Position numbers and translations under genes: made by a program
Shown here: piece after piece, positions 6,628 to 53,016 of the stretch
How positions within the stretch are numbered: position 1 is the stretch's first letter
Layout: each line of letters begins with the position of its first letter
Source of the DNA: a virus
Strand: one strand, 5' to 3'
Length of the DNA stretch: 64,000 nt
IMG/VR virus record: IMGVR_UViG_3300002835_000029
Coordinates: 1-64,000 of that record
Notes under the pieces: model-generated
What the model saw: only the letters and a program-made list of their open reading frames with translations
The model's database searches: none
What the model was told of the DNA's origin: nothing

Positions 6628-6975
6628 GGGGGCGAAAGGTATCGACAGGTAAACGGATATATAGATGGCATCCACTGGTTAATCGACCGGCCAGTATAAA
6701 AGTCGATTAAAATGTTAGTTGGCGAAACTCGTTTCGCTCTCGCTGCCTGACCTAGTTAGGCAAGAGTGCGGTGGCATGAACCGTATTGCCCAATCATGCT
6801 GACTCCGATAATCGGATATGGTATCCTCACCAAACATAAATGGGGGTAATGATTGTATTCAATCTGACACAGATAATTCTGTTAGCTTTGTTAGCTGTGC
6901 GAGAACAACTAACTAAGGATGTAGATGTTTATATTGAAATTATTCTGGACGCGAGTTCGATTCTCGCCGCCTCCA
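6628..6975 (+). ncRNA. ssrA: tmRNA (transfer-messenger RNA), one-piece
   Basis: The 5' end GGGGGCG pairs with CGCCTCC at 6968-6974 to form the acceptor stem, with discriminator A at 6975 and no encoded CCA. GGTATCGACAGG follows the 5' strand, as in bacterial tmRNAs, and the 3' end has a T arm with GCGAG, TTCGATT and CTCGC. The tag frame follows TTAGTT: nine codons from GGC at 6721 to TGA at 6748-6750 give GETRFALAA, so the full tag would be Ala-GETRFALAA. The Ala-Leu-Ala-Ala end is the usual protease degron. In bacteria tmRNA rescues stalled ribosomes with SmpB. No smpB is seen here, so host SmpB would be needed. The RNA starts directly after the thioredoxin stop codon and is probably processed from that transcript. 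Confidence 0.95.
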
Positions 6976-6976
6976 C

Positions 6977-7005
6977 TTGACAATAGCAACTAATAGAGAT
7001 ACAAT
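6977..7005 (+). promoter_or_regulatory. Sigma70-type promoter in front of tRNA-Ser
   Basis: TTGACA at 6977-6982 and TACAAT at 7000-7005 are separated by 17 bp. The predicted start is near 7012, at the mature 5' end of the tRNA, so the tRNA may be transcribed with almost no leader. It may also serve the gene at 7123. Confidence 0.5.
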
Positions 7006-7010
7006 TAGTA

Positions 7011-7097
7011 GGAAGAATGGCAGAGTGGACTAATGCATCTGATTACTAATCAGAAGAAGCGTAAAAACTTCCGTGGGTTCGAATCCTACTTCTTCCG
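7011..7097 (+). tRNA. tRNA-Ser with anticodon ACT
   Basis: The 7-bp acceptor stem GGAAGAA/TTCTTCC, Ser-type 3-bp D stem (GCA/TGC), 5-bp anticodon stem TCTGA/TCAGA and T arm GTGGG-TTCGAAT-CCTAC all form. The 7-nt anticodon loop TTACTAA gives anticodon ACT, reading AGU. The long variable arm (GAAG/CTTC stem) and G discriminator at 7097 fit a class II serine tRNA. CCA is not encoded. Bacterial AGY-reading tRNA-Ser normally carries GCT, so A at position 34 is unusual. Confidence 0.92.
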
Positions 7098-39353: not shown

Positions 39354-39852
39354 GCCGCAATTATTTAATCAGACGTATCAAAAAGAATGGTCAGAAACTC
39401 ATAAATACAAGCATATTCATACTGGTGAATACTGTACTTTTGAAGCATATGTTGCAGAATATATAGTTTTGAGAAGATCTGAAAAATTGAACTTGGGTAA
39501 ACCTTCATATAAGTTCTGGACTAAAGGTGATCCACTACATTGGTTGTGGAAGAAACAGCACGGTGCTGCGGTTCAGCTTAAAAAGAAATATAGCGAAGAA
39601 GCTATATTGCAAGCTATAAAATCAAAAGACTTTGATAGGCTACTGGTACTTGGTGTGCAAAATGGAAGAGGATATAAGATTAGCCCAGAAGCAGAAAAAG
39701 TAATTGCCAAATATCAAAAGAAGATTGAAGAAGAACAAAATAAACCCCAAGTTAATCTTGAAGTTAAAGAAGAAAATACACCGCTTGAAACTAGATCGTC
39801 TAGCGGCTATAATACAAAAAGGACAACGTTGAACCAACTGAGGAATTTATGA
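39337..39852 (+). CDS. Hypothetical protein, 171 aa
   Basis: The protein has a Trp-Ser-Glu-Thr-His-Lys-Tyr-Lys-His-Ile-His start region, a Trp-Leu-Trp-Lys-Lys-Gln-His helix near residue 70 and a highly charged coiled-coil-like tail ending in a basic tip. It may bind DNA. It overlaps recA by ATGA. No family is recognised. Confidence 0.55.
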   Translation: MSNKDKPQLFNQTYQKEWSETHKYKHIHTGEYCTFEAYVAEYIVLRRSEKLNLGKPSYKFWTKGDPLHWLWKKQHGAAVQLKKKYSEEAILQAIKSKDFDRLLVLGVQNGRGYKISPEAEKVIAKYQKKIEEEQNKPQVNLEVKEENTPLETRSSSGYNTKRTTLNQLRNL

Positions 39853-40955
39853 GCAAAACCAAAAAGATAACAGGTAAGTTTTCAGAAGATGCGGTTAGTA
39901 ATTCTATAGTAAGTAAGTATGGCGATGTTGTTAGGAGTGGAACAGAAGTTCTTCAAAATATAAATAGTCTGGGAGTTATAGGAATATCTCCAGCCCTTGA
40001 TATTGCTTTGGGCGGTGGGCTAAGAGAAGGATCTGTAGTAGTAATGACGGGAGATCCAAAAAGCGGAAAAACCACAACAGCATTACATTTTGCTGCCAAG
40101 TGTCAAAAGCTCAACAAAAGAATCATTTATATAAACACAGAGGGTAGACTATCTAAGCAAAACTTTGATGGTATTAAAGGTCTAGAACCAGATAATATTA
40201 TCATTATAGAATCAACTGATGAGAGAGTTCTATCAGCAGAAGACTTCTTAAACATTATTGAGTTTTATATTAACAATGATCCCGGTTGCCTCATAATTAC
40301 AGACTCACTATCTAATATGGTTCCAGCGTGTGAGCTAGAGGGAGAAGTTAGAACGGGCGTAAGAAATGCTTTGCCAAGATTACTCTCCATGTTTTTCAAG
40401 CGTATTAGTGGTACGCTTATGAAGAATAAGACTATATTAATTTGTATTACTCATAATATTGCTAATACTGGCGGATCTCCATATGCACCACAAAAGATGG
40501 CAGATTGTGGAAACATGTTACAATATCAAGCCGGTACAAACATGGTGATCACCCATCGCGGAAAGTGGCAAGTTCCAAAAGATACTGGTGTACACGTTGG
40601 TCAGATAGCAAACTGGGTAATAAAAACATCAACCGCTGGCGGTAGGCCAAATAGTACAGCAGAAAGTTGGATTAAGTACGGGGTTGGAGTTGACGAAGTA
40701 CAAGAGATAATTCAGATTGCCTGTGAGTTTAGACTTATCAAAGCGGCTGGTGCTTGGTATACTATACAGTGTGCCGTAGATGAACCAGAAAATCCCATTG
40801 TTTCTAAGGTGCTAGAAGAAAACCAGATAGGCAAGACTCCAGACGAAATAGAAAGATTCTTTAAGTTTCAAGGCGTTAACAACGTAGCAGAATTCTTGAA
40901 TGGCAATCTAGCAATTTCATCATTTATTTATAACAAGATAAAGGAGCTTCATTGA
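39849..40955 (+). CDS. recA: RecA-like recombinase
   Basis: The 368-aa protein has Walker A Gly68-Asp-Pro-Lys-Ser-Gly-Lys-Thr75, Ile-Ile-Tyr-Ile-Asn-Thr-Glu (catalytic Glu), Walker B Cys-Leu-Ile-Ile-Thr-Asp-Ser-Leu, and an L2-like loop after Ile-Cys-Ile-Thr-His-Asn. The order matches bacterial RecA and phage UvsX. It would form filaments on single-stranded DNA for recombination-dependent replication and repair. The downstream nuclease gene starts within its last codons. Confidence 0.92.
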   Translation: MSKTKKITGKFSEDAVSNSIVSKYGDVVRSGTEVLQNINSLGVIGISPALDIALGGGLREGSVVVMTGDPKSGKTTTALHFAAKCQKLNKRIIYINTEGRLSKQNFDGIKGLEPDNIIIIESTDERVLSAEDFLNIIEFYINNDPGCLIITDSLSNMVPACELEGEVRTGVRNALPRLLSMFFKRISGTLMKNKTILICITHNIANTGGSPYAPQKMADCGNMLQYQAGTNMVITHRGKWQVPKDTGVHVGQIANWVIKTSTAGGRPNSTAESWIKYGVGVDEVQEIIQIACEFRLIKAAGAWYTIQCAVDEPENPIVSKVLEENQIGKTPDEIERFFKFQGVNNVAEFLNGNLAISSFIYNKIKELH

Positions 40956-42236: not shown

Positions 42237-43703
42237 ATGGAAGTTAAACTAACTGATATTGGATCAGAAAGAGCCGTTTTAGCTGGACTATTGCAGCACG
42301 GTATAGATGGATATGTAGCTATATCTGACGTAGTGAGTCAAGATACTTTCGGACATTTGAATAATCAAATATTGTTTAAGTGCATTGAAAAGGTTATTCT
42401 CAACGATCAGAAAGTAGATATACCATCAATACTGTCGGCAGCAGATCAGTTGAATCTTTCTGAAAGCATAAACACAGATCAAGAGTTGAAGTATATTAAG
42501 TCTTTAATGGACTTCCCAATCAACAAAGATAATGTGTTTAGCTTTGCAATACAGATGAAGAAGTTTGAATTTGCACGTAAGATAAAAGGTCTTACTGCAA
42601 AAATTCATAAAGATGTAGATAGTGTTACTGGTGCTGAGTCTATAAATGAGATTATACAAATACTGGAGAATCCAGTTACTGATTTCTTAAGGGAAGATGA
42701 TAGCGGCGATCTTCCAGAAAAGATTGGCAAGGATGCCAAAGATTATATACAGTTTCTAGAAGAAAATAAATGTGACATTATAGGCATTCCAACCGGCTTC
42801 AACAAGTATGATGAAGCAATTGGCGGTGGATTGCGAAGGAAGTGTGTTGATTTAATATCAGCACGACCCAAAGTTGGGAAAAGCGTGTTCGCTGATAATG
42901 TAGCATTAAATGTATCTTCTGGTGGAGTTCCAGTATTGATGTTAGATACTGAAATGAGTAAGGAAGATCATTTAAATAGACTATTGGCAAACATAAGTGG
43001 AGTTCCAATCAATGAAGTAGCCACTGGTAAGTTTACAGAAGATGAAGAAAAACGACGCAAGGTAATGGAAGCAATTGAAAAGATTGAGTCTATACCTTAT
43101 AGTTATGTTAGCGTTGCTGGAAAACCATTTGAACAAATACTTAACCTAATTAAACGTTGGGTTATGCAAGAAGTCAAGATGGGTGATAATGGCAAGACAA
43201 ATAACTGTCTTATTATATATGATTATCTTAAGTTAATGTCATCCACTTCTATTACTAATAATATACAAGAGTACCAAGCACTTGGTTTTCAGATTACATC
43301 GCTACATAATCTTTGCGTCAAGCTTGACATACCATGCTTGTCCTTTGTACAATTGAACCGTGACGGCATAACAAAAGAAAGCACAGACGCTGTTTCTGGA
43401 TCGGACAGATTGATTTGGCTATGTACATCATTCAGTATATTCAAAATCAAATCTCCAGAAGAACTAGCAGAAGATGGGCCAAATGCTGGCAATAGGAAGC
43501 TTGTGCCAATTGTTTCAAGGCATGGTGGAGGTTTGGACGATGGTGATTATATCAACATGGTAATGCAGGGATCTCACGCCAAGTTAAGAGAACTTAAAAC
43601 ACGTAATGAATTTAAGAATCAACCAGTTGGAGATACTGGTATGGTAGATCAGAATACATTAGATAAGCTAAAAATTAATGGACTTGCAGAAGATCAAGAA
43701 TAG
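42237..43703 (+). CDS. dnaB: Replicative DNA helicase, DnaB-like
   Basis: I chose the ATG at 42237; the frame is open to 42159 but that part overlaps the zinc-finger gene in another frame. The 488-aa protein has the DnaB N-terminal domain (Glu-Arg-Ala-Val-Leu-Ala-Gly-Leu-Leu, then Asp-Ile-Pro-Ser-Ile-Leu) and a RecA-like motor with Ile-Pro-Thr-Gly-Phe-x2-Tyr-Asp, Walker A Ala-Arg-Pro-Lys-Val-Gly-Lys-Ser (about 209-216), Leu-Asp-Thr-Glu-Met-Ser (H1a) and Ser-Phe-Val-Gln-Leu-Asn-Arg. It unwinds DNA as a hexamer at the fork. Confidence 0.93.
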   Translation: MEVKLTDIGSERAVLAGLLQHGIDGYVAISDVVSQDTFGHLNNQILFKCIEKVILNDQKVDIPSILSAADQLNLSESINTDQELKYIKSLMDFPINKDNVFSFAIQMKKFEFARKIKGLTAKIHKDVDSVTGAESINEIIQILENPVTDFLREDDSGDLPEKIGKDAKDYIQFLEENKCDIIGIPTGFNKYDEAIGGGLRRKCVDLISARPKVGKSVFADNVALNVSSGGVPVLMLDTEMSKEDHLNRLLANISGVPINEVATGKFTEDEEKRRKVMEAIEKIESIPYSYVSVAGKPFEQILNLIKRWVMQEVKMGDNGKTNNCLIIYDYLKLMSSTSITNNIQEYQALGFQITSLHNLCVKLDIPCLSFVQLNRDGITKESTDAVSGSDRLIWLCTSFSIFKIKSPEELAEDGPNAGNRKLVPIVSRHGGGLDDGDYINMVMQGSHAKLRELKTRNEFKNQPVGDTGMVDQNTLDKLKINGLAEDQE

Positions 43704-44718
43704 TCTTAACGAGCAATCAGAAGAAGTATTCTCAAAACTAGGTATGAAATACGAAGTTTTGGGAGATAACATCTATTGTAATTGTCCTGTCCACGAAGGC
43801 AGCGATAACCCAAGAGCATTCTCATTCTCTAAAGATAAAGGCATATGGAAATGCTGGACTAGAGATTGTCAGCAACAATACAGGAATGATATATTTGGAG
43901 TTATAAGAGGATCACTTTCAAAGGAGATTGGAGTAGAGGCTGAATTTTCTGATGCTCTAAAATGGGCGTGTGATTTTCTAGGTATCAAAAAAGATAGAAG
44001 CTCATCTCAAAAAACTATTGTTAAAGAACCAATAAAAGAAGATGACTTTAATAAACTAGTAAACACAATAAACTCTAAAGTTAAACTAGATGATAATTAT
44101 CCAGCAATTGAAATAGAAGAATGCGTAAAAACACCGTCACAATATTTTATATCTAGGGGATTCAAACCAGAAACTTTAGTTCATTTTGATGTTGGAGATT
44201 GTTATGATCGTGGATCAAAATTATACGAAAGATCAGTAGTCCCCATTCATAATGATACGGGCGATAAAGTAATAGCTTGTATAGCAAGGTCTATAAAAGA
44301 ATATAGAAGCCCAAAGTTTCTTCTAGACCCAAAGGGGTTTGATAAGAGATATTTCTTTTATAACTATCACCGAGCTATAGAAAGTGTTAAACAAACATCA
44401 TCATTATTTCTAGTAGAAGGACAGGGCGATGTTTGGAGACTATATGAAGCTGGTATTACTCAGTCAATGAGTCTTTTTGGTAGGAATCTTAGCAAAGAAC
44501 AAGAATTAAAACTGTCTAAAATGCCCCTCACTCATATAATAGTCTTACTAGACAATGATCAAGCGGGTCGAGAGGCAAAAGTTCAACTCCAAAGACAATT
44601 GGGTAGAATGTATAAGTTATCTTTCCCCAAAATACCAACCAAAGACGTTGGCGAGATGAGAGTCGAACAAATACAGAATATTATCATACCACAGGTTAGG
44701 GGAACAATAAATGGTTAA
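43678..44718 (+). CDS. dnaG: DNA primase, DnaG-like
   Basis: The N-terminus has a zinc site with C34, C36, H39, C59 and C64 in the CHC2-type arrangement. The TOPRIM domain follows: Leu-Phe-Leu-Val-Glu247-Gly-Gln-Gly-Asp and Val-Leu-Leu-Asp292-Asn-Asp-Gln-Ala-Gly. At 346 aa it lacks the C-terminal helicase-binding domain of bacterial DnaG, as is usual for phage primases. The gene overlaps the helicase by 26 nt and the next gene by 8 nt, which supports joint primosome expression. Confidence 0.92.
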   Translation: MDLQKIKNSLNEQSEEVFSKLGMKYEVLGDNIYCNCPVHEGSDNPRAFSFSKDKGIWKCWTRDCQQQYRNDIFGVIRGSLSKEIGVEAEFSDALKWACDFLGIKKDRSSSQKTIVKEPIKEDDFNKLVNTINSKVKLDDNYPAIEIEECVKTPSQYFISRGFKPETLVHFDVGDCYDRGSKLYERSVVPIHNDTGDKVIACIARSIKEYRSPKFLLDPKGFDKRYFFYNYHRAIESVKQTSSLFLVEGQGDVWRLYEAGITQSMSLFGRNLSKEQELKLSKMPLTHIIVLLDNDQAGREAKVQLQRQLGRMYKLSFPKIPTKDVGEMRVEQIQNIIIPQVRGTING

Positions 44719-46188: not shown

Positions 46189-47211
46189 ATGTTATGTACT
46201 TATATTAGAAGTTCTTCATATAACCAATATGAATATTGTCAAATGAGTTATTTTATTACTTATAACTTAGGATTTAATCAACCGTCTGGTAAACGTGCAG
46301 ATATGGGTACTATTGTCCACAAGGTTATGGAAATATTAGCTAAAACCAAAGAAAAAATTCAACAAAATCTAAAGATCAAAAAAATACAATTTCAAGATGA
46401 TGCTTTAGGGTCTATTATCATTGATAAAAATGAATTTTTGACAGATAAGATAATAGATAAACTTTTAAATCTTAGTTTTGATTATTATTCTAATAGATCT
46501 TCTCATAATAAATTTACCAAAAAAGATAGAGAAGATTGTTTAAAAATGTGTTTTGACGCTGTTAGATATAACAATGGTCAGTTTGATCCAAGACTAAGGA
46601 AAATAGTGGCGGCAGAGCCTCACTTTGATATACCAATCGATGAAGATTGGGCTTTCTATGAGTATGAAGTAAATGGTCAAAAGATAAAAGGGCAGCTTGC
46701 TATTAAGGGTACTATTGACTTAGTAACAGAAACAGAAGAAGGTATTATTGAAGTAATAGATTGGAAGACAGGTCGTAGGCTAGATTGGGCAACCGGCGAG
46801 GAAAAGACATATGGTAAGCTATGTTCAGATCCTCAGTTATTGCTATATAATTATGCAATTTCTAAGCTCTTCCCCCAGTACAAGCAGTCAATAATGAGTA
46901 TCTTTTTTATTAAGGATGGTGGTCCATTTTCGATGTGTTTTGATAAAGCTGATGAAAAAAGGTTCTTGGAGATGCTAAAGGAAAGGTTTCTAGACATCAA
47001 AAAGAATGAAAAACCACAGCCAATTTCGCCCAATAGAGAGAACTGGAAATGCACTAAATTGTGCCATTATTGCAAAAACAAGTGGCCCGAAACCGACCAG
47101 AACATGTGTATATATATAGAGAATAGCATAAAAACTAATGGTATGGAACAAACCATAAAGGATTGTACAAGGTCAGGATTTGATATTGGATTCTATTCTG
47201 CTCCCGGTTGA
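46189..47211 (+). CDS. RecB/Cas4-like PD-(D/E)xK exonuclease with Cys cluster
   Basis: The nuclease core is Gly-Thr-Ile-Val-His-Lys-Val-Met-Glu (helix), Ile-Lys-Gly-Thr-Ile-Asp-Leu-Val, Glu-Val-Ile-Asp-Trp-Lys-Thr-Gly (D...D-x-K), and Gln-Leu-Leu-Leu-Tyr-Asn-Tyr-Ala. One Cys at about residue 18 and a C-terminal Cys-x3-Cys-x2-Cys-x10-Cys group (about 285-305) recall the iron-sulphur cluster of Cas4 and AddB. It would process DNA ends for RecA-mediated recombination. At 340 aa it is longer than Cas4 alone. The cluster assignment is inferred from spacing. Confidence 0.85.
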   Translation: MLCTYIRSSSYNQYEYCQMSYFITYNLGFNQPSGKRADMGTIVHKVMEILAKTKEKIQQNLKIKKIQFQDDALGSIIIDKNEFLTDKIIDKLLNLSFDYYSNRSSHNKFTKKDREDCLKMCFDAVRYNNGQFDPRLRKIVAAEPHFDIPIDEDWAFYEYEVNGQKIKGQLAIKGTIDLVTETEEGIIEVIDWKTGRRLDWATGEEKTYGKLCSDPQLLLYNYAISKLFPQYKQSIMSIFFIKDGGPFSMCFDKADEKRFLEMLKERFLDIKKNEKPQPISPNRENWKCTKLCHYCKNKWPETDQNMCIYIENSIKTNGMEQTIKDCTRSGFDIGFYSAPG

Positions 47212-49156: not shown

Positions 49157-50782
49157 ATGAACTGGTTCCCGTTGAAGAATTATACCCATTACAGTTTGCT
49201 CAAAGGTTATTCAAAGCCAGAAGAATTGGCTAAAAAATGTAAGTATAATGGATATCCAGCATGTGGTATTTGTGATTATAAAACATTATCTGGTGCAGTT
49301 GCTTTTTATAAAGCCTGCAAAAAACAGGGTATAAAGCCCATCATTGGATGCTCATTTGATTTTGCTACACTTTTTGCTAAGAATAAAGATGGGTGGTACG
49401 AGTTAATTGAGATGGTTTCATCACTAGATGAAAATGGTAAATTACCAGAGCAATATGACAACACAAATATCAGTAAAAATTTGATTAGTGTCTATAATGC
49501 TCCTACTGAATCAATGCCTATTAGTTATTATACAAATAGGGAAGATGCCAAACTTCACAGAATATTATTATGTTCTGATATGAAGACTACGCTACCAAAA
49601 ATAAAGAAATGCATTAGGCCAGACAACAGCGGTGGTATAAATGTAGACTCAAAATATCCCCAAGAGCATATGGATAAATTGGTATATTTTATGCAAGACT
49701 CTTTCTACGTTAAAGACAAAGACGAATCTAAGGGCTTAGACTCATCTAAACTAAAAGAGATTTATGACCAGTGTGAAGACTACGATATTCTCAGCAAGCC
49801 AATGTTGCCTAAATTTGAATGTCCAAAAGGGGCATCAGAAGAAGATTATCTCAAGGAACTATGTCGTATTGGCTGGAAGAAAATATTAATAGATCAAAAC
49901 AAGGTATCAAACGAAGAAGATAAGCAGAAGTATTTGAGTAGATTCAAGGAAGAGTTTGATGTTATTAAAGATGCTAATCTATTCGGATATTTTCTTATTG
50001 TTCGTGATATTATAAAGCACGTTAATGATATGGGTTGGCTATCTGGTCCCGGTAGAGGATCTGCCGCAGGATGTTTAATCTCATATTTAATTGGCATAAC
50101 GAAGATTGACCCAATAGAGTTTGACCTTCTATTTGCACGATTTTATAACGCTGGAAGAAACAGTGCTGATCATATATCTCTACCAGATATTGATATAGAC
50201 GTTCCCGGTACTAAGCGTGATGAAATTATTGCATATCTAAAAGATAAGTATGGGAATAGTCGAGTTAGCCAAATGTTAACGTTTGGAAGACTTCAAGGAA
50301 AGAGTGCTATTAAGGAAGTTTTACGTGTTAATGAGGCTTGCTCATTCTCTGAAATGAATGCTATAAGTAACTGTATACCAGACGAAGCAAGAATCTCAGA
50401 TCAATTAGCAGAAATGGATGATGAAGATCGATCTATTATTAAGTGGGCTTTGATTAATAACTCTGAGGATCTAAGAGATTTCTGTAGAATATCAGAAGAT
50501 GGAAAACTTGAGGGAGAGTATGCTGAATATTTTGAACAAGCTATTCAGATAGAGGGAACATTTAAAACTCAAGGCAAACACGCTGCCGGTGTGGTAATTT
50601 CAGCAGAGCCACTTCAAAAGGTATGCCCAATGGTAAAACAAAAAGGCTCGTCAGAAAAGGTGGCTGGACTTGAAATGGCAGACTTAGAGGCACTGGGCCA
50701 CGTAAAGTTTGACGTTCTAGGAATCAATTTGCTAGATAAAATTATGAAGATTGAAGAACTAACAGGAGTATCTAATGGCTAA
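49157..50782 (+). CDS. dnaE: DNA polymerase III alpha, N-terminal half (PHP and palm)
   Basis: Residues 1-220 align with the PHP domain but the metal histidines of the His-Leu-His-x-His region are replaced (Leu-Lys-Asn-Tyr-Thr-His-Tyr-Ser), and Thr-Asp-His becomes Cys-Asp-Tyr, so the PHP site is probably inactive. The palm is intact: Gly-Pro-Gly-Arg-Gly-Ser-Ala-Ala-Gly-Cys near 296, the catalytic pair D344 and D346 in Pro-Asp-Ile-Asp-Ile-Asp, and D519 in Val-Lys-Phe-Asp-Val-Leu-Gly. The protein ends at residue 541, shortly after the third aspartate, where a single alpha chain would continue into Phe-Gln-Leu-Glu-Ser. The remainder is encoded 663 nt on. The next gene overlaps by 8 nt. Confidence 0.92.
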   Translation: MNWFPLKNYTHYSLLKGYSKPEELAKKCKYNGYPACGICDYKTLSGAVAFYKACKKQGIKPIIGCSFDFATLFAKNKDGWYELIEMVSSLDENGKLPEQYDNTNISKNLISVYNAPTESMPISYYTNREDAKLHRILLCSDMKTTLPKIKKCIRPDNSGGINVDSKYPQEHMDKLVYFMQDSFYVKDKDESKGLDSSKLKEIYDQCEDYDILSKPMLPKFECPKGASEEDYLKELCRIGWKKILIDQNKVSNEEDKQKYLSRFKEEFDVIKDANLFGYFLIVRDIIKHVNDMGWLSGPGRGSAAGCLISYLIGITKIDPIEFDLLFARFYNAGRNSADHISLPDIDIDVPGTKRDEIIAYLKDKYGNSRVSQMLTFGRLQGKSAIKEVLRVNEACSFSEMNAISNCIPDEARISDQLAEMDDEDRSIIKWALINNSEDLRDFCRISEDGKLEGEYAEYFEQAIQIEGTFKTQGKHAAGVVISAEPLQKVCPMVKQKGSSEKVAGLEMADLEALGHVKFDVLGINLLDKIMKIEELTGVSNG

Positions 50783-51455
50783 TAGAGACTATATTATATT
50801 TGATTTTGAAACAGGATCACGCAATCCACATCGTACTCAACCAACACAAATCGCCGCTATTGCCTTAGATGGAAGAACATTGCAGATGAAGGGGCAATTC
50901 AACAGTGAAATTAAGCCTATTTTTGATGATGAAAAAGCTATAGCGGCTGGATTTGACCCCATACAAGATGAAGCTCTAAAGATAACAAAGAAGACAAGGG
51001 AGCAATTAGAATTAGCACCATCCTTAAAGTCCGTATGGAATAAATTTACAAAATTTGTTGATCAATACAACTGGAAGGGTGAACCATTTTTTAATCCTAT
51101 CCCTGTTGGTTTTAATATAATTGGCTTCGATATGCACATAATAAACAGACTATGTAGAGATTTTGGACCTTGGGACAAAGAGAGAGAGCAGCAAAAACTA
51201 TTCAGTAGAGTCTATAAGATAGATATCATGGATAGTGTATTTGCTTGGACTGAAAGCGATCCCAGTGTTAGATCTATAAGCATGGATTCTTTGCGTGAGA
51301 GAATGGGCTTAAGTTTTGACAATGCTCACGATGCTCTACAGGACGTTAAAGATGAAGCAAATATATTTATTAAGCTTATGAAAACTCATCGTGCGGTATA
51401 CCAAAACATGAACTTTGATAAGGCTTTTGCTGACGGAAATTTGTATGTTAAATAA
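50775..51455 (+). CDS. DnaQ-like 3'-5' proofreading exonuclease, inserted between polymerase halves
   Basis: The DEDDh set is complete: D10 and E12 in Ile-Ile-Phe-Asp-Phe-Glu-Thr-Gly, D119 in Gly-Phe-Asn-Ile-Ile-Gly-Phe-Asp, H185 and D190 in Ala-His-Asp-Ala-Leu-Gln-Asp. The 226-aa length is near E. coli epsilon without the C-terminal alpha-binding tail. A degenerate PHP domain in the polymerase leaves proofreading to this separate subunit. It starts inside the end of the N-half gene and ends inside the start of the C-half gene, so all three are translationally coupled and probably assemble together. Confidence 0.9.
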   Translation: MANRDYIIFDFETGSRNPHRTQPTQIAAIALDGRTLQMKGQFNSEIKPIFDDEKAIAAGFDPIQDEALKITKKTREQLELAPSLKSVWNKFTKFVDQYNWKGEPFFNPIPVGFNIIGFDMHIINRLCRDFGPWDKEREQQKLFSRVYKIDIMDSVFAWTESDPSVRSISMDSLRERMGLSFDNAHDALQDVKDEANIFIKLMKTHRAVYQNMNFDKAFADGNLYVK

Positions 51456-53016
51456 TTTAGACTATAATGATAAAACAACTTGGCAACTGTTCGCAGAAGG
51501 CAAGACTAAGGGAATCTTTCAATTAGAAAGTAACCTTGGAAAATCATGGTCTAAAAAAGTTGCACCAAATAATATTGAAGAACTATCAGCACTAATTGCT
51601 ATCATTAGGCCGGGAACTTTGAAAGCAATTGTTGATGGGAAAAGCATGACCCAGCATTATGTAGACCGTAAGCACGGTAGAGAAGAAGTAACATATCTTC
51701 ATCCAGCACTTGAAGAGATTCTAAAGCCAACATATGGAGTTCTTGTATATCAAGAGCAGTCTATGCGTATAGCAGAGAAAATCGCTGGTTTCAATTTACA
51801 AGAGGCAGACGTTCTTCGTAAGGCCATTGGAAAGAAAAAGGCTGACCTCATGAATGAAGTCAAAAAATCATTCATAGCGGGGGCAGAGCGTGTTGGAATT
51901 GTAAGTAAGGAGAACGCAGAAGAAATTTTCGGATGGATTGAGAAATCATCAAGATACGCATTTAATAAATCCCACAGTGTTTCATATGCTGTATGTTCTT
52001 ATTGGAGTGCATACTTTAAGGCTCATAACACCAAGGAATTCTTTTTGTCTTACCTGTTCTACGCGAATGAAAAGCAAGACCCTCATCAAGAAGTTTATGA
52101 ATTGATATCTGAGGCAAAACTATTTGATATTGAGACAAGAACTCCAAGCTTAACCAACTTTGAAAGAAAGTTCAATATTAAGCGTGGTAAGATATACTTT
52201 GGTATTAAGGATGTAAAGTCACTAACGGGTGCGACCGGAGATAAGTTAATAGAAACTATAAATGAAGCTGAAAAGACTTTGAGTAAACCAGTAAAGGAAT
52301 TTACTTGGCTTGAAATCTTGCTTTTTATAGGATCAAATATTAGCTCTACTGCATTCAAGGCTTTAGCCTCAATAGGATTCTTTAGAAATTTCAAGAGCAG
52401 TGTTACTAGAAACAAAGCTCTCTATGATTATGAAATTTATAGAACTCTCACCAAAGCAGAACAGACTTGGATATTAAATCATTATAGTGATAAAAAGTGG
52501 AGTTCCTTTGTGGATTGCTTGAGAGATTTAGCACCGACTAAAAAAGATGGTGGTGGAACTAGCAAAGCTGACAGGAAGCAGGCTATAGAAAATGAAATAC
52601 AACTATTAGTAAGTCCACCGTATGATCTAGAAGACGATCCAACTTGGATTATAGATCAAGAGGTCAAATTTCTAGGATGTCCAGTTACAATGACGAAGGT
52701 TGAGACTTCTGACACTTCTGCTGCTAACACAACTTGCAAAGAAATAATCAATGGCAAGAAGGGTAAGGATATGTGCGTAGTTGCCAACATTCAAAGACTA
52801 TCAGATTATACCATCAATAAAGGCGAATCTAAGGGTCAGGTCATGTCATTTTTGACTATAGAGGATGATACGTGCATATTAGACAGTGTTATAGTATTTC
52901 CAAAGACCCGTGAAAAGTATAAATATATTCTATATGAAGGAAACAACTTAATTTTCTGTGGGTCAGTAAGTGATAAAGATACATCATTTATAGTAGATAA
53001 GATTCATGAAATTTAA
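51445..53016 (+). CDS. dnaE: DNA polymerase III alpha, C-terminal half (fingers, thumb-like and OB)
   Basis: I chose the ATG at 51445 within the exonuclease end (11-nt overlap) over a TTG at 51415. The chain resumes with Gly-Ile-Phe-Gln-Leu-Glu-Ser near residue 25, then Ile-Arg-Pro-Gly-Thr-Leu, Arg-Lys-His-Gly-Arg-Glu-Glu, Tyr-Gly-Val-Leu-Val-Tyr-Gln-Glu-Gln, Arg-Lys-Ala-Ile-Gly-Lys-Lys-Lys and Ala-Phe-Asn-Lys-Ser-His-Ser, all in the order of DnaE fingers. The C-terminal 80 residues form an OB-like domain. It has no own catalytic aspartates. With the N-half it rebuilds a polymerase of about 1,060 residues. No intein splicing motifs flank either break. Confidence 0.92.
   Translation: MLNNLDYNDKTTWQLFAEGKTKGIFQLESNLGKSWSKKVAPNNIEELSALIAIIRPGTLKAIVDGKSMTQHYVDRKHGREEVTYLHPALEEILKPTYGVLVYQEQSMRIAEKIAGFNLQEADVLRKAIGKKKADLMNEVKKSFIAGAERVGIVSKENAEEIFGWIEKSSRYAFNKSHSVSYAVCSYWSAYFKAHNTKEFFLSYLFYANEKQDPHQEVYELISEAKLFDIETRTPSLTNFERKFNIKRGKIYFGIKDVKSLTGATGDKLIETINEAEKTLSKPVKEFTWLEILLFIGSNISSTAFKALASIGFFRNFKSSVTRNKALYDYEIYRTLTKAEQTWILNHYSDKKWSSFVDCLRDLAPTKKDGGGTSKADRKQAIENEIQLLVSPPYDLEDDPTWIIDQEVKFLGCPVTMTKVETSDTSAANTTCKEIINGKKGKDMCVVANIQRLSDYTINKGESKGQVMSFLTIEDDTCILDSVIVFPKTREKYKYILYEGNNLIFCGSVSDKDTSFIVDKIHEI

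What the first reader, a model, noticed from the sequence alone, without database searches (positions are those of the whole stretch)
49157..53016. Pol III alpha split in two genes with a proofreading exonuclease gene in the gap
The N-half ends soon after the third catalytic aspartate (D519) and the C-half resumes at the Phe-Gln-Leu-Glu-Ser region, so the break lies inside the catalytic core. Between them sits a complete DEDDh exonuclease, and both junctions overlap (8 and 11 nt), which couples all three genes. The PHP domain has lost its metal histidines, so proofreading must come from the separate exonuclease. The three proteins probably form one enzyme from three chains. I see no intein motifs. 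I do not know of a described phage polymerase with exactly this arrangement.
Basis: partly seen in the sequence, partly recalled or inferred. Interest (0 to 1): 0.9.

Follow-up and report, generated by a model that had tools for sequence, protein, structure and literature searches.

The report
Phage replicase split around exonuclease gene
A large group of uncultured phages appears to copy its DNA with a bacterial-type replication enzyme cut into two separate proteins, with the gene for a proofreading-type exonuclease sitting in the cut, which offers a natural test of whether such an enzyme can work in pieces.

Summary
Confirmed and extended. The window (part of a 128,858-base virus record) encodes Pol III alpha as two frames: PHP-palm-thumb (541 aa) and fingers-OB (523 aa). 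An intact DEDDh exonuclease gene lies between them, overlapping by 8 and 11 nt. The predicted halves fit E. coli alpha 4-586 and 584-1073. It is not an assembly error: 281 of 305 related viral-contig loci (167 distinct exonuclease genes) keep the order N-exo-C. The three genes are under purifying selection, and no intein or intron was found at the break. Trees support one old fracture: two intact-alpha relatives with similar neighbours fall outside, and one split sister lineage lacks the gap exonuclease and carries other genes there. Gaps often collect extra ORFs (127 of 167 loci). So the exonuclease is a clade-specific resident of an older or equally old break, and tight coupling of all three genes is not conserved (33 of 167). 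Best reading: a two-chain family-C replicase, probably with the exonuclease as proofreader; chain association was not tested. A split phage Pol III alpha has a published precedent, so this is a new variant of a known kind.

The parts
49157..50782 (+). N-half of Pol III alpha (541 aa): PHP, palm, thumb, palm
   Evidence: Pfam PHP 71 bits and DNA_pol3_alpha 231 bits; AF2 model pLDDT 92.4, pTM 0.90; aligns to E. coli alpha 2hnh 4-586, Z 26.0, rmsd 2.8, 488 residues
50186..50194 (+). codons of catalytic Asp D344 and D346 (PDIDID)
   Evidence: invariant in 66 of 66 rows; equivalence to E. coli D401/D403 recalled
50711..50713 (+). codon of third catalytic Asp D519 (= E. coli D555)
   Evidence: alignment to 2hnh; invariant in 66 of 66 rows
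50775..50782 (+). 8-nt overlap of N-half and exonuclease genes
50775..51455 (+). DEDDh 3'-5' exonuclease (226 aa), the gene in the gap
   Evidence: RNase_T 54.9 bits over cut-off; phrog_192 'DNA polymerase exonuclease subunit' 87 bits; D10, E12, D119, H185, D190 invariant in 17 of 17; only PF00929 match in the record
51445..51455 (+). 11-nt overlap of exonuclease and C-half genes
51445..53016 (+). C-half of Pol III alpha (523 aa): fingers to OB domain
   Evidence: DNA_pol3_finger 166.7 bits; AF2 model pLDDT 92.4, pTM 0.83; aligns to E. coli alpha 5fku 584-1073, Z 22.4, rmsd 8.4, 453 residues, and to 2hnh 584-910, Z 20.5, rmsd 3.4, 319 residues
53068..53379 (+). SSB-like protein, neighbour downstream
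   Evidence: PF00436 37.2 bits; an SSB-like ORF also follows the intact alpha in L367 and L412, read by eye
46189..47211 (+). PD-(D/E)XK nuclease, neighbour upstream in the replication module
   Evidence: PF12705 80.5 bits; a similar ORF, read by eye, lies upstream in L367
42159..43703 (+). DnaB-like helicase of the same module (followed by Toprim primase-like 43678-44718)
   Evidence: phrog_19 175.7 bits; Toprim
39849..40955 (+). UvsX/RecA-like recombinase of the same module
   Evidence: phrog_97 115.5 bits

Best explanation
The phage's replicase is a family-C (DnaE-type) polymerase made of two chains that are not joined by a peptide bond. The N-chain carries PHP, palm with the three catalytic aspartates, and thumb. 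The C-chain carries fingers and OB. They are expected to reassemble non-covalently along the normal palm-fingers interface. Shown by sequence and models: both halves are complete and complementary, under purifying selection and kept together in nearly all sampled loci; the break falls in a short linker; no intein or intron was found that could join them; no PF00136 (Pol B) or PF00476 (Pol A) match was found in the record. Inferred: that the two chains bind and polymerise. History (inferred from trees): an alpha that was intact, in a similar gene neighbourhood, was fractured once at the palm-fingers linker. The gap then took up other genes, and one large clade holds and keeps there a DEDDh exonuclease that most probably proofreads for the split polymerase (as epsilon does), while many of its members lost the PHP metal motifs.
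For: Models of the two halves cover E. coli alpha 4-586 and 584-1073. 281 of 305 loci in N-exo-C order. dN/dS 0.018-0.051 for all three genes against L004-L006, 0.030-0.125 against L045. N tail under 30 aa past the last conserved column in 167 of 167, and a start codon before the first conserved C column in 166 of 167. NCBIfam intein model silent on the window proteins but at cut-off in L132 and L229, which have inteins elsewhere in alpha. No intron family at Rfam gathering score in the window. Halves up to about 12 kb apart in a split relative. No match in the record to PF00136, PF00476, PF02767 or PF13177, and one to PF00929. Trees: split clade 100 (SH-aLRT, 54 rows) and 100/100 (UFBoot/SH-aLRT, 38 rows); exo clade 99 and 100/100; exo-less split clade 98 and 96/91; L367 and L412 outside. 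Distance matrices correlate: N-C 0.86, N-E 0.78, E-C 0.83, 0 of 999 permutations as high, 65 loci.
Against: Distance correlations also arise from shared ancestry alone. The exonuclease's partner role rests on position, co-inheritance and active-site conservation; no NCBIfam epsilon model reaches its cut-off. The exo-less split lineage manages without it in the gap: no PF00929 match in 3 of 4 records tested, a distant one in the fourth, and no gap-type exonuclease in the assembly of L244. 51 of 167 exo-bearing loci keep both PHP motifs tested, and exo-less L244 lacks one, so PHP loss and the gap exonuclease do not match perfectly. Pol B and A were tested with one Pfam model each and the record may be incomplete, so another polymerase is not excluded. 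The viral relatives come from uncultured contigs.
Confidence: 0.8

Rival explanations
1. The two halves are joined after translation by trans-splicing (split intein) or after transcription by an intron, as in cyanobacterial dnaE or 'fractured genes'.
For: Split and complete inteins do occur elsewhere in alpha in this group: L132 (GPGRG/SAAG), L229 (RPG, and FNK/SH with an endonuclease-like ORF between the parts), and an intein-like insert near RPG in L377.
Against: At the palm-fingers break there is no room: N tails under 30 aa in 167 of 167 loci. No intein model hit on the window proteins. No intron family at Rfam gathering score in the window. Exonuclease and C-half have their own starts and overlap their neighbours in the window.
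Confidence: 0.03
2. The halves are a decaying or secondary polymerase, not the replicase; the host enzyme does the work.
For: No PF02767 clamp or PF13177 loader match in the record, so host replisome parts are probably used.
Against: Low dN/dS, catalytic aspartates invariant in 66 of 66 rows, retention across 19 exonuclease clusters at 60% identity, position in a module with helicase, primase-like protein, recombinase and SSB, no PF00136 or PF00476 match.
Confidence: 0.1
3. The exonuclease is only a passenger that happens to sit in a permissive gap, with a recombination or nucleotide role, and does not proofread for this polymerase.
For: The gaps accept many unrelated ORFs (50 clusters among 167 gap ORFs; sugar, methyltransferase, UDG, HNH and GIY-YIG type matches). 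The split sister lineage lacks it in the gap. Both PHP motifs persist in 51 of 167 exo-bearing loci.
Against: Unlike the other gap ORFs it is kept throughout a well-supported clade, tracks N and C (Mantel 0.78-0.83) and has the lowest dN/dS of the three in 3 of 4 unsaturated comparisons (L004-L006; not L045). Loss of both PHP motifs was seen only in exo-bearing loci (111 of 167, against 0 of 7 exo-less or intact relatives, of which L244 lost one), in line with the published link between PHP loss and a separate exonuclease (PMC3666897, abstract and passages).
Confidence: 0.25
4. Assembly or frameshift artefact of one metagenome.
For: The window is itself an environmental virus record; a few loci do show isolated in-frame stops (L176, L224, L318).
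Against: 167 distinct exonuclease sequences on contigs of many different data sets share the arrangement, with a whole gene in the gap.
Confidence: 0.01

Closest known systems
Bacterial DNA polymerase III alpha (DnaE, family C)
   Same: PHP, palm, thumb, fingers and OB in the same order; catalytic Asp triad; folds superpose
   Different: Two chains instead of one; no tau-binding C-terminal domain (C-half stops at E. coli-equivalent 1073; domain limits 1079-1160 from PMC4703070, passages read)
Split minimal Pol III alpha of group 2.2 jumbo phages (PMC7824862, passages read)
   Same: Phage family-C catalytic subunit in two standalone proteins, proposed to reconstitute
   Different: There: minimal catalytic core only, distantly placed genes, together with a family-B polymerase. 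Here: PHP-to-OB alpha, adjacent genes with an exonuclease gene in the gap, no PF00136 match in the record. Sequence kinship between the two was not tested
Fractured genes with split inteins (Dassa et al. 2009; seen only as cited in PMC3403396 and PMC8899391, original not held) and cyanobacterial split dnaE
   Same: Gene cut in two with another gene in the gap (recalled for Dassa); dnaE as target (PMC3403396, PMC8899391, passages read)
   Different: No intein halves at this break; the gap gene is an exonuclease, not a homing endonuclease
PolC, and Bacteroidetes DnaE1 with a fused exonuclease (PMC3919608, passages read)
   Same: Proofreading-type exonuclease encoded within or next to the polymerase coding region
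   Different: There the exonuclease is a domain of one chain (inside PHP, or N-terminal to it); here it is a separate gene between palm and fingers halves
Other broken phage Pol III alpha genes: Cellulophaga phage phiST, Bacillus phage Jayan, Alicyclobacillus phage MMB025
   Same: Alpha in two ORFs
   Different: Breaks elsewhere: near PDIDID (phiST, Jayan) or in the fingers with an endonuclease gene in the gap (MMB025); no exonuclease in the break
Split gp43 (family B) of some T4-like phages
   Same: Replicative polymerase in two genes (recalled, not read)
   Different: Other polymerase family; homing endonuclease context (recalled)

Membership tests
Family-C Pol III alpha | PHP + palm/thumb + fingers, in order | tested here: met
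Family-C Pol III alpha | three catalytic aspartates | tested here: met
   D344, D346, D519 invariant in 66 of 66 rows; D519 = E. coli D555
Family-C Pol III alpha | single polypeptide | tested here: not met
   two ORFs in window; 281 of 305 loci N-exo-C
Family-C Pol III alpha | tau-binding C-terminal domain of DnaE1 | tested here: not met
   last model residue (523) aligns at 1073 of 5fku; domain 1079-1160 per PMC4703070
Split-intein fractured gene | intein halves at both edges of the break | tested here: not met
   N tail under 30 aa in 167 of 167; no intein model hit in window proteins
Split-intein fractured gene | homing endonuclease gene in the gap | tested here: not met
   gap gene of the window is an RNase_T exonuclease; HNH, Endonuclease VII or GIY-YIG type ORFs occur in the gaps of some relatives
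Group 2.2 jumbo-phage split Pol III | two standalone alpha pieces | tested here: met
Group 2.2 jumbo-phage split Pol III | minimal core without other Pol III domains | tested here: not met
   PHP and OB present
Group 2.2 jumbo-phage split Pol III | accompanied by family-B polymerase | tested here: not met
   no PF00136 match in the 128,858-base record; record may be incomplete
Group 2.2 jumbo-phage split Pol III | sequence kinship and same breakpoint | not tested
   those proteins were not fetched
Epsilon/DnaQ proofreading exonuclease | DEDDh active site, RNase_T family | tested here: met
   PF00929 over cut-off; five residues invariant in 17 of 17
Epsilon/DnaQ proofreading exonuclease | curated epsilon model cut-off reached | tested here: not met
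   NCBIfam PRK06310 and PRK06309 matched below cut-off
Epsilon/DnaQ proofreading exonuclease | binds alpha and lowers error rate | not testable with these tools
   no complex prediction or assay available
PolC | exonuclease domain inside the PHP domain of one chain | tested here: not met
   separate ORF between palm and fingers halves

The most novel reading that the evidence does not exclude
A whole clade of uncultured phages replicates its genome with an obligately multi-chain family-C replicase. The active site is shared by two chains that are never covalently joined, descended from one old fracture at the palm-fingers linker, and the gap in the gene has worked ever since as a landing site from which an exonuclease, encoded between the two halves, was recruited as a third, proofreading subunit.
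Probability: 0.42. Interest if true: 0.86.

Novelty: new variant of a known kind. Interest (0 to 1): 0.72.

Why it matters
Family-C replicases are described with PHP, palm, thumb and fingers within a single polypeptide, and E. coli Pol III as unfolding cooperatively (PMC3666897, abstract and passages). A natural, long-lived two-chain form would show where that core can be cut without loss, and gives ready-made fragments for split-polymerase biochemistry. The family also seems to preserve the steps: intact relatives with similar neighbours, a split lineage without the gap exonuclease, and a split lineage with it. That makes a stepwise account of subunit gain testable. It further suggests how a break in an essential gene can become a stable gene-landing site in phage genomes.

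Tried and rejected
Assembly error: rejected by 167 distinct sequences. Intein or intron at the break: not found; frameshift or hop: not compatible with halves in different places up to many kb apart. Exonuclease of intact relative G013 or of G010 as the source of the gap exonuclease: only 17.5 and 13.8 bits to the gap-exonuclease profile, so not a clear orthologue. L318 (bacterial dnaE with one in-frame stop at this place; contig coverage about 1 by its title) and L224, L176 (isolated stops) set aside as probable errors. The L244 C-half as a single-protein query in viral contigs found no relative. A paper search for split gp43 of T4-like phages gave only an unrelated hit, so that comparison is recalled. 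A host was not established: one relative lies in a Flavobacteriales MAG and two in Lokiarchaeota MAGs, which may be binning errors. The habitats of the contigs were not looked up.

Trees: 374 loci had joined alpha pieces; seven with inteins, extra breaks or stops were left out (L229, L132, L133, L358, L370, L176, L224) and the rest thinned by identity to representatives, 54 rows; 16 named long or redundant rows were dropped for the careful tree of 38 rows. The label phageIntact includes L328, a Salmonella contig held in the phage collection, and L332, which groups with it; both are read as cellular dnaE. PHP motifs were counted by pattern. The Mantel test used 65 loci thinned from 155 usable of 167. 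Gap sizes are counted from profile starts and can be off by a few nt. Gap ORFs (55 aa or more) are mechanical; 39 of 50 cluster representatives and one further ORF were scanned.

N-only, N-N and N-E loci (14 of 305) were not each checked for contig ends.
Full report
Observation. The window belongs to a virus record of 128,858 bases. At 49157-50782, 50775-51455 and 51445-53016 on the + strand lie three overlapping genes. The first carries PHP and DNA_pol3_alpha, the second RNase_T, the third DNA_pol3_finger. PHROGs gives phrog_405 (DNA polymerase) for the first and third, best stretches at profile positions 246-617 and 623-1063, and phrog_192 (DNA polymerase exonuclease subunit) for the second. 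The overlaps are 8 and 11 nt.

Where the break is. Sequence alignment puts the N-half at E. coli alpha up to about 564 and the C-half from 591. Structure models made from alignments of 66 and 70 sequences reached mean pLDDT 92.4 each (pTM 0.90 and 0.83). They superpose on E. coli alpha at 4-586 (2hnh, Z 26.0, rmsd 2.8, 488 residues) and 584-1073 (5fku, Z 22.4, rmsd 8.4, 453 residues; the large rmsd may reflect movement of the OB tail; 2hnh gives Z 20.5, rmsd 3.4 over 319 residues, 584-910). The halves are therefore complementary, and the tau-binding domain (1079-1160 per PMC4703070, passages read) is absent. In the six intact alphas measured (L367, L412, L093, L323, L325, L330) the linker at this place is 13-20 aa. 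PMC4703070 fitted palm and fingers as one rigid body, so the break lies inside that unit, but in a short linker, not in a catalytic motif.

Conservation. Five viral-contig scans were made; four gave loci, 305 in all. Of these 276 are N-E-C, 4 N-N-E-C, 1 N-E-C-C, 5 N-E, 8 N, 3 C, 2 E-C, 2 N-C, 2 one continuous N+C, 1 N-N and 1 N-N-E-E-C. Many loci are contigs found again; the 281 with the three in order hold 167 distinct exonuclease sequences, 19 clusters at 60% identity. Of the incomplete ones, L057 and L058 have N elsewhere in the record, and L337 and L377 have N about 11.8 and 5.1 kb upstream of C. dN/dS against the window is 0.018-0.051 for the three genes in L004, L005 and L006, where dS is 0.37-0.64; in L045 it is 0.125 (N, dS only 0.055), 0.056 (exo) and 0.030 (C); the other seven loci tested are near or at saturation for at least one gene. 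The N, E and C distance matrices agree (Mantel 0.78-0.86; 65 loci), as shared ancestry alone would also give.

No joining mechanism found. N tails end under 30 aa after the last conserved column in 167 of 167 loci, and a start codon precedes the first conserved C column in 166 of 167. The NCBIfam intein model does not hit the window proteins, and Rfam reports no intron at gathering score in the window. Positive controls come from the same family. L132 has an intein N-part after GPGRG and an intein-like C-part before SAAG in two ORFs. L229 has one intein at RPG and a second, split one at FNK/SH with an endonuclease-like ORF between the parts. The intein_Nterm model reaches cut-off in L132 (25.5 against 24.5) and L229 (42.3); the C-parts were read by eye. 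So inteins are visible here when present, and none is seen at the palm-fingers break.

History. A deeper scan found split alphas with the same break but no gap exonuclease: L336/L418, L337/L415, L338/L416 and L377/L417, to which L244 from a MAG contig belongs. Their gaps hold a macro-domain gene plus a UDG gene (L336), DUF4326 plus a macro-like gene (L244), or several kb with methyltransferase- and glycosyltransferase-like ORFs (L338, L377 and L337, read by eye). It also found two continuous alphas, L367 and L412. L367 has PD-(D/E)XK-like, SSB-like and glycosyltransferase-like neighbours like those of the window; L412 has the SSB-like and glycosyltransferase-like ones (by eye). In a 54-row tree the split clade has support 100, the exo-bearing part 99 and the exo-less part 98. 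In a 38-row careful tree these are 100/100, 100/100 and 96/91, with both intact alphas on the outgroup side. The simplest account is one fracture of an intact alpha. Whether the exonuclease arrived afterwards in one branch or was lost in the other is equally parsimonious; none was noted beside the intact alphas, and the distant RNase_T genes of G013 and G010 are not clear orthologues.

The gap as a landing site. 127 of 167 loci carry at least one further ORF of 55 aa or more in the gaps (167 such ORFs, 50 clusters). Of 40 proteins scanned (39 of the 50 cluster representatives and one further gap ORF), matches include HNH_3, Endonuclease_7, T5orf172/MUG113, UDG, DUF4326, FkbM methyltransferase and sugar-epimerase families. 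Both junctions are compact (30 nt or less) in 33 of 167, so translational coupling of all three genes is a feature of this phage and some relatives, not of the family.

Role of the exonuclease. It is the only PF00929 match in the record, its DEDDh residues are invariant in 17 of 17 aligned, and it is kept throughout a well-supported clade. The PHP motifs tested by pattern (HxH and DH) are both gone in 111 and both present in 51 of the 167 exo-bearing loci, with 5 mixed. Both are present in 6 of 7 exo-less or intact relatives (split L415-L418, intact L367 and L412), while L244 keeps the first only. This fits the published link between PHP metal-site loss and a separate exonuclease (PMC3666897, abstract and passages), but shows that loss is not a precondition.

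Context. No match to PF00136 (Pol B), PF00476 (Pol A), PF02767 (beta clamp) or PF13177 (delta-prime-type loader) was found in the record. DnaB, primase-like, UvsX-like and SSB genes lie nearby. No record of the phage collection is close: all 1,311 records matching the N-half are under 60% identity, the best-ranked row being 33% over 93% of it in an uncultured faecal phage clone. For the exonuclease all 7 matching records are under 60%, best 27%, in a Bacteroides phage whose alpha is continuous and lies about 14 kb away.

Comparison with print. PMC7824862 (passages read) describes a minimal Pol III alpha split into two distantly encoded proteins in group 2.2 jumbo phages that also carry PolB. 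That is the closest precedent; it differs in domain content, gene placement and the accompanying polymerase. In PMC3919608 the passages read mention intein-split, frameshifted and exonuclease-fused bacterial forms, not this one; those of PMC12926913 mention none of these for alpha. Ten paper searches of the held open library showed no description of this arrangement in the listings and passages seen; subscription papers are mostly not held. Hence: new variant of a known kind.

Limits. No interaction or activity was tested; complex prediction was not possible with the tools. Viral relatives are uncultured contigs, scans were capped and seeded from split members, and the record may be incomplete.

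Noticed in passing
window 6628-6978 and 7011-7097: The phage carries a full tmRNA gene (Rfam 108.8 bits; tag peptide GETRFALAA) followed by a tRNA-Ser gene.
   Followed up: no
L132 2763-5102 (same contig as L358): Natural split-intein arrangement inside the N-half of alpha at GPGRG/SAAG, so this relative would need trans-splicing on top of the palm-fingers split.
   Followed up: partly
L229 8473-12109; L377 4957-7572: L229 C-half holds a complete intein at RPG and a second, split one at FNK/SH with an endonuclease-like ORF between the parts; L377 has an intein-like insert near RPG.
   Followed up: partly
L092 (Bacillus phage Jayan) 3986-7393 and L333 (Bacillus phage PS1) 3986-7072: Two phages with nearly identical alpha (very short branches), one with alpha broken near PDIDID with a small ORF between the parts, one with alpha continuous: a recent break.
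   Followed up: no
L045 against the window: Synonymous distance is 0.055 in N, 0.23 in the exonuclease and 0.36 in C, suggesting recombination within the module.
   Followed up: no
gap 1, e.g. L393 4131-4382 and L138 5020-5229: Two clusters of small proteins of about 70 aa (45 and 24 of 167 gap ORFs) recur between N-half and exonuclease; the L393 representative has no Pfam match. Possible further subunits.
   Followed up: partly
L243, L244 and L242: Relatives sit on contigs binned in two Lokiarchaeota MAGs and one Flavobacteriales MAG; binning error or a host hint.
   Followed up: no
L336 5306-5899 and L139 2500-3072: A UDG-family gene sits in the gap of exo-less L336 and a UDG-like one, read by eye with one UDG match among the scanned set, in that of exo-bearing L139; possibly an older gap resident.
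   Followed up: no
L057 and L058: Exonuclease and C-half stay together while the N-half lies about 6 kb upstream, behind genes resembling aldehyde dehydrogenase and aminotransferase by eye.
   Followed up: partly
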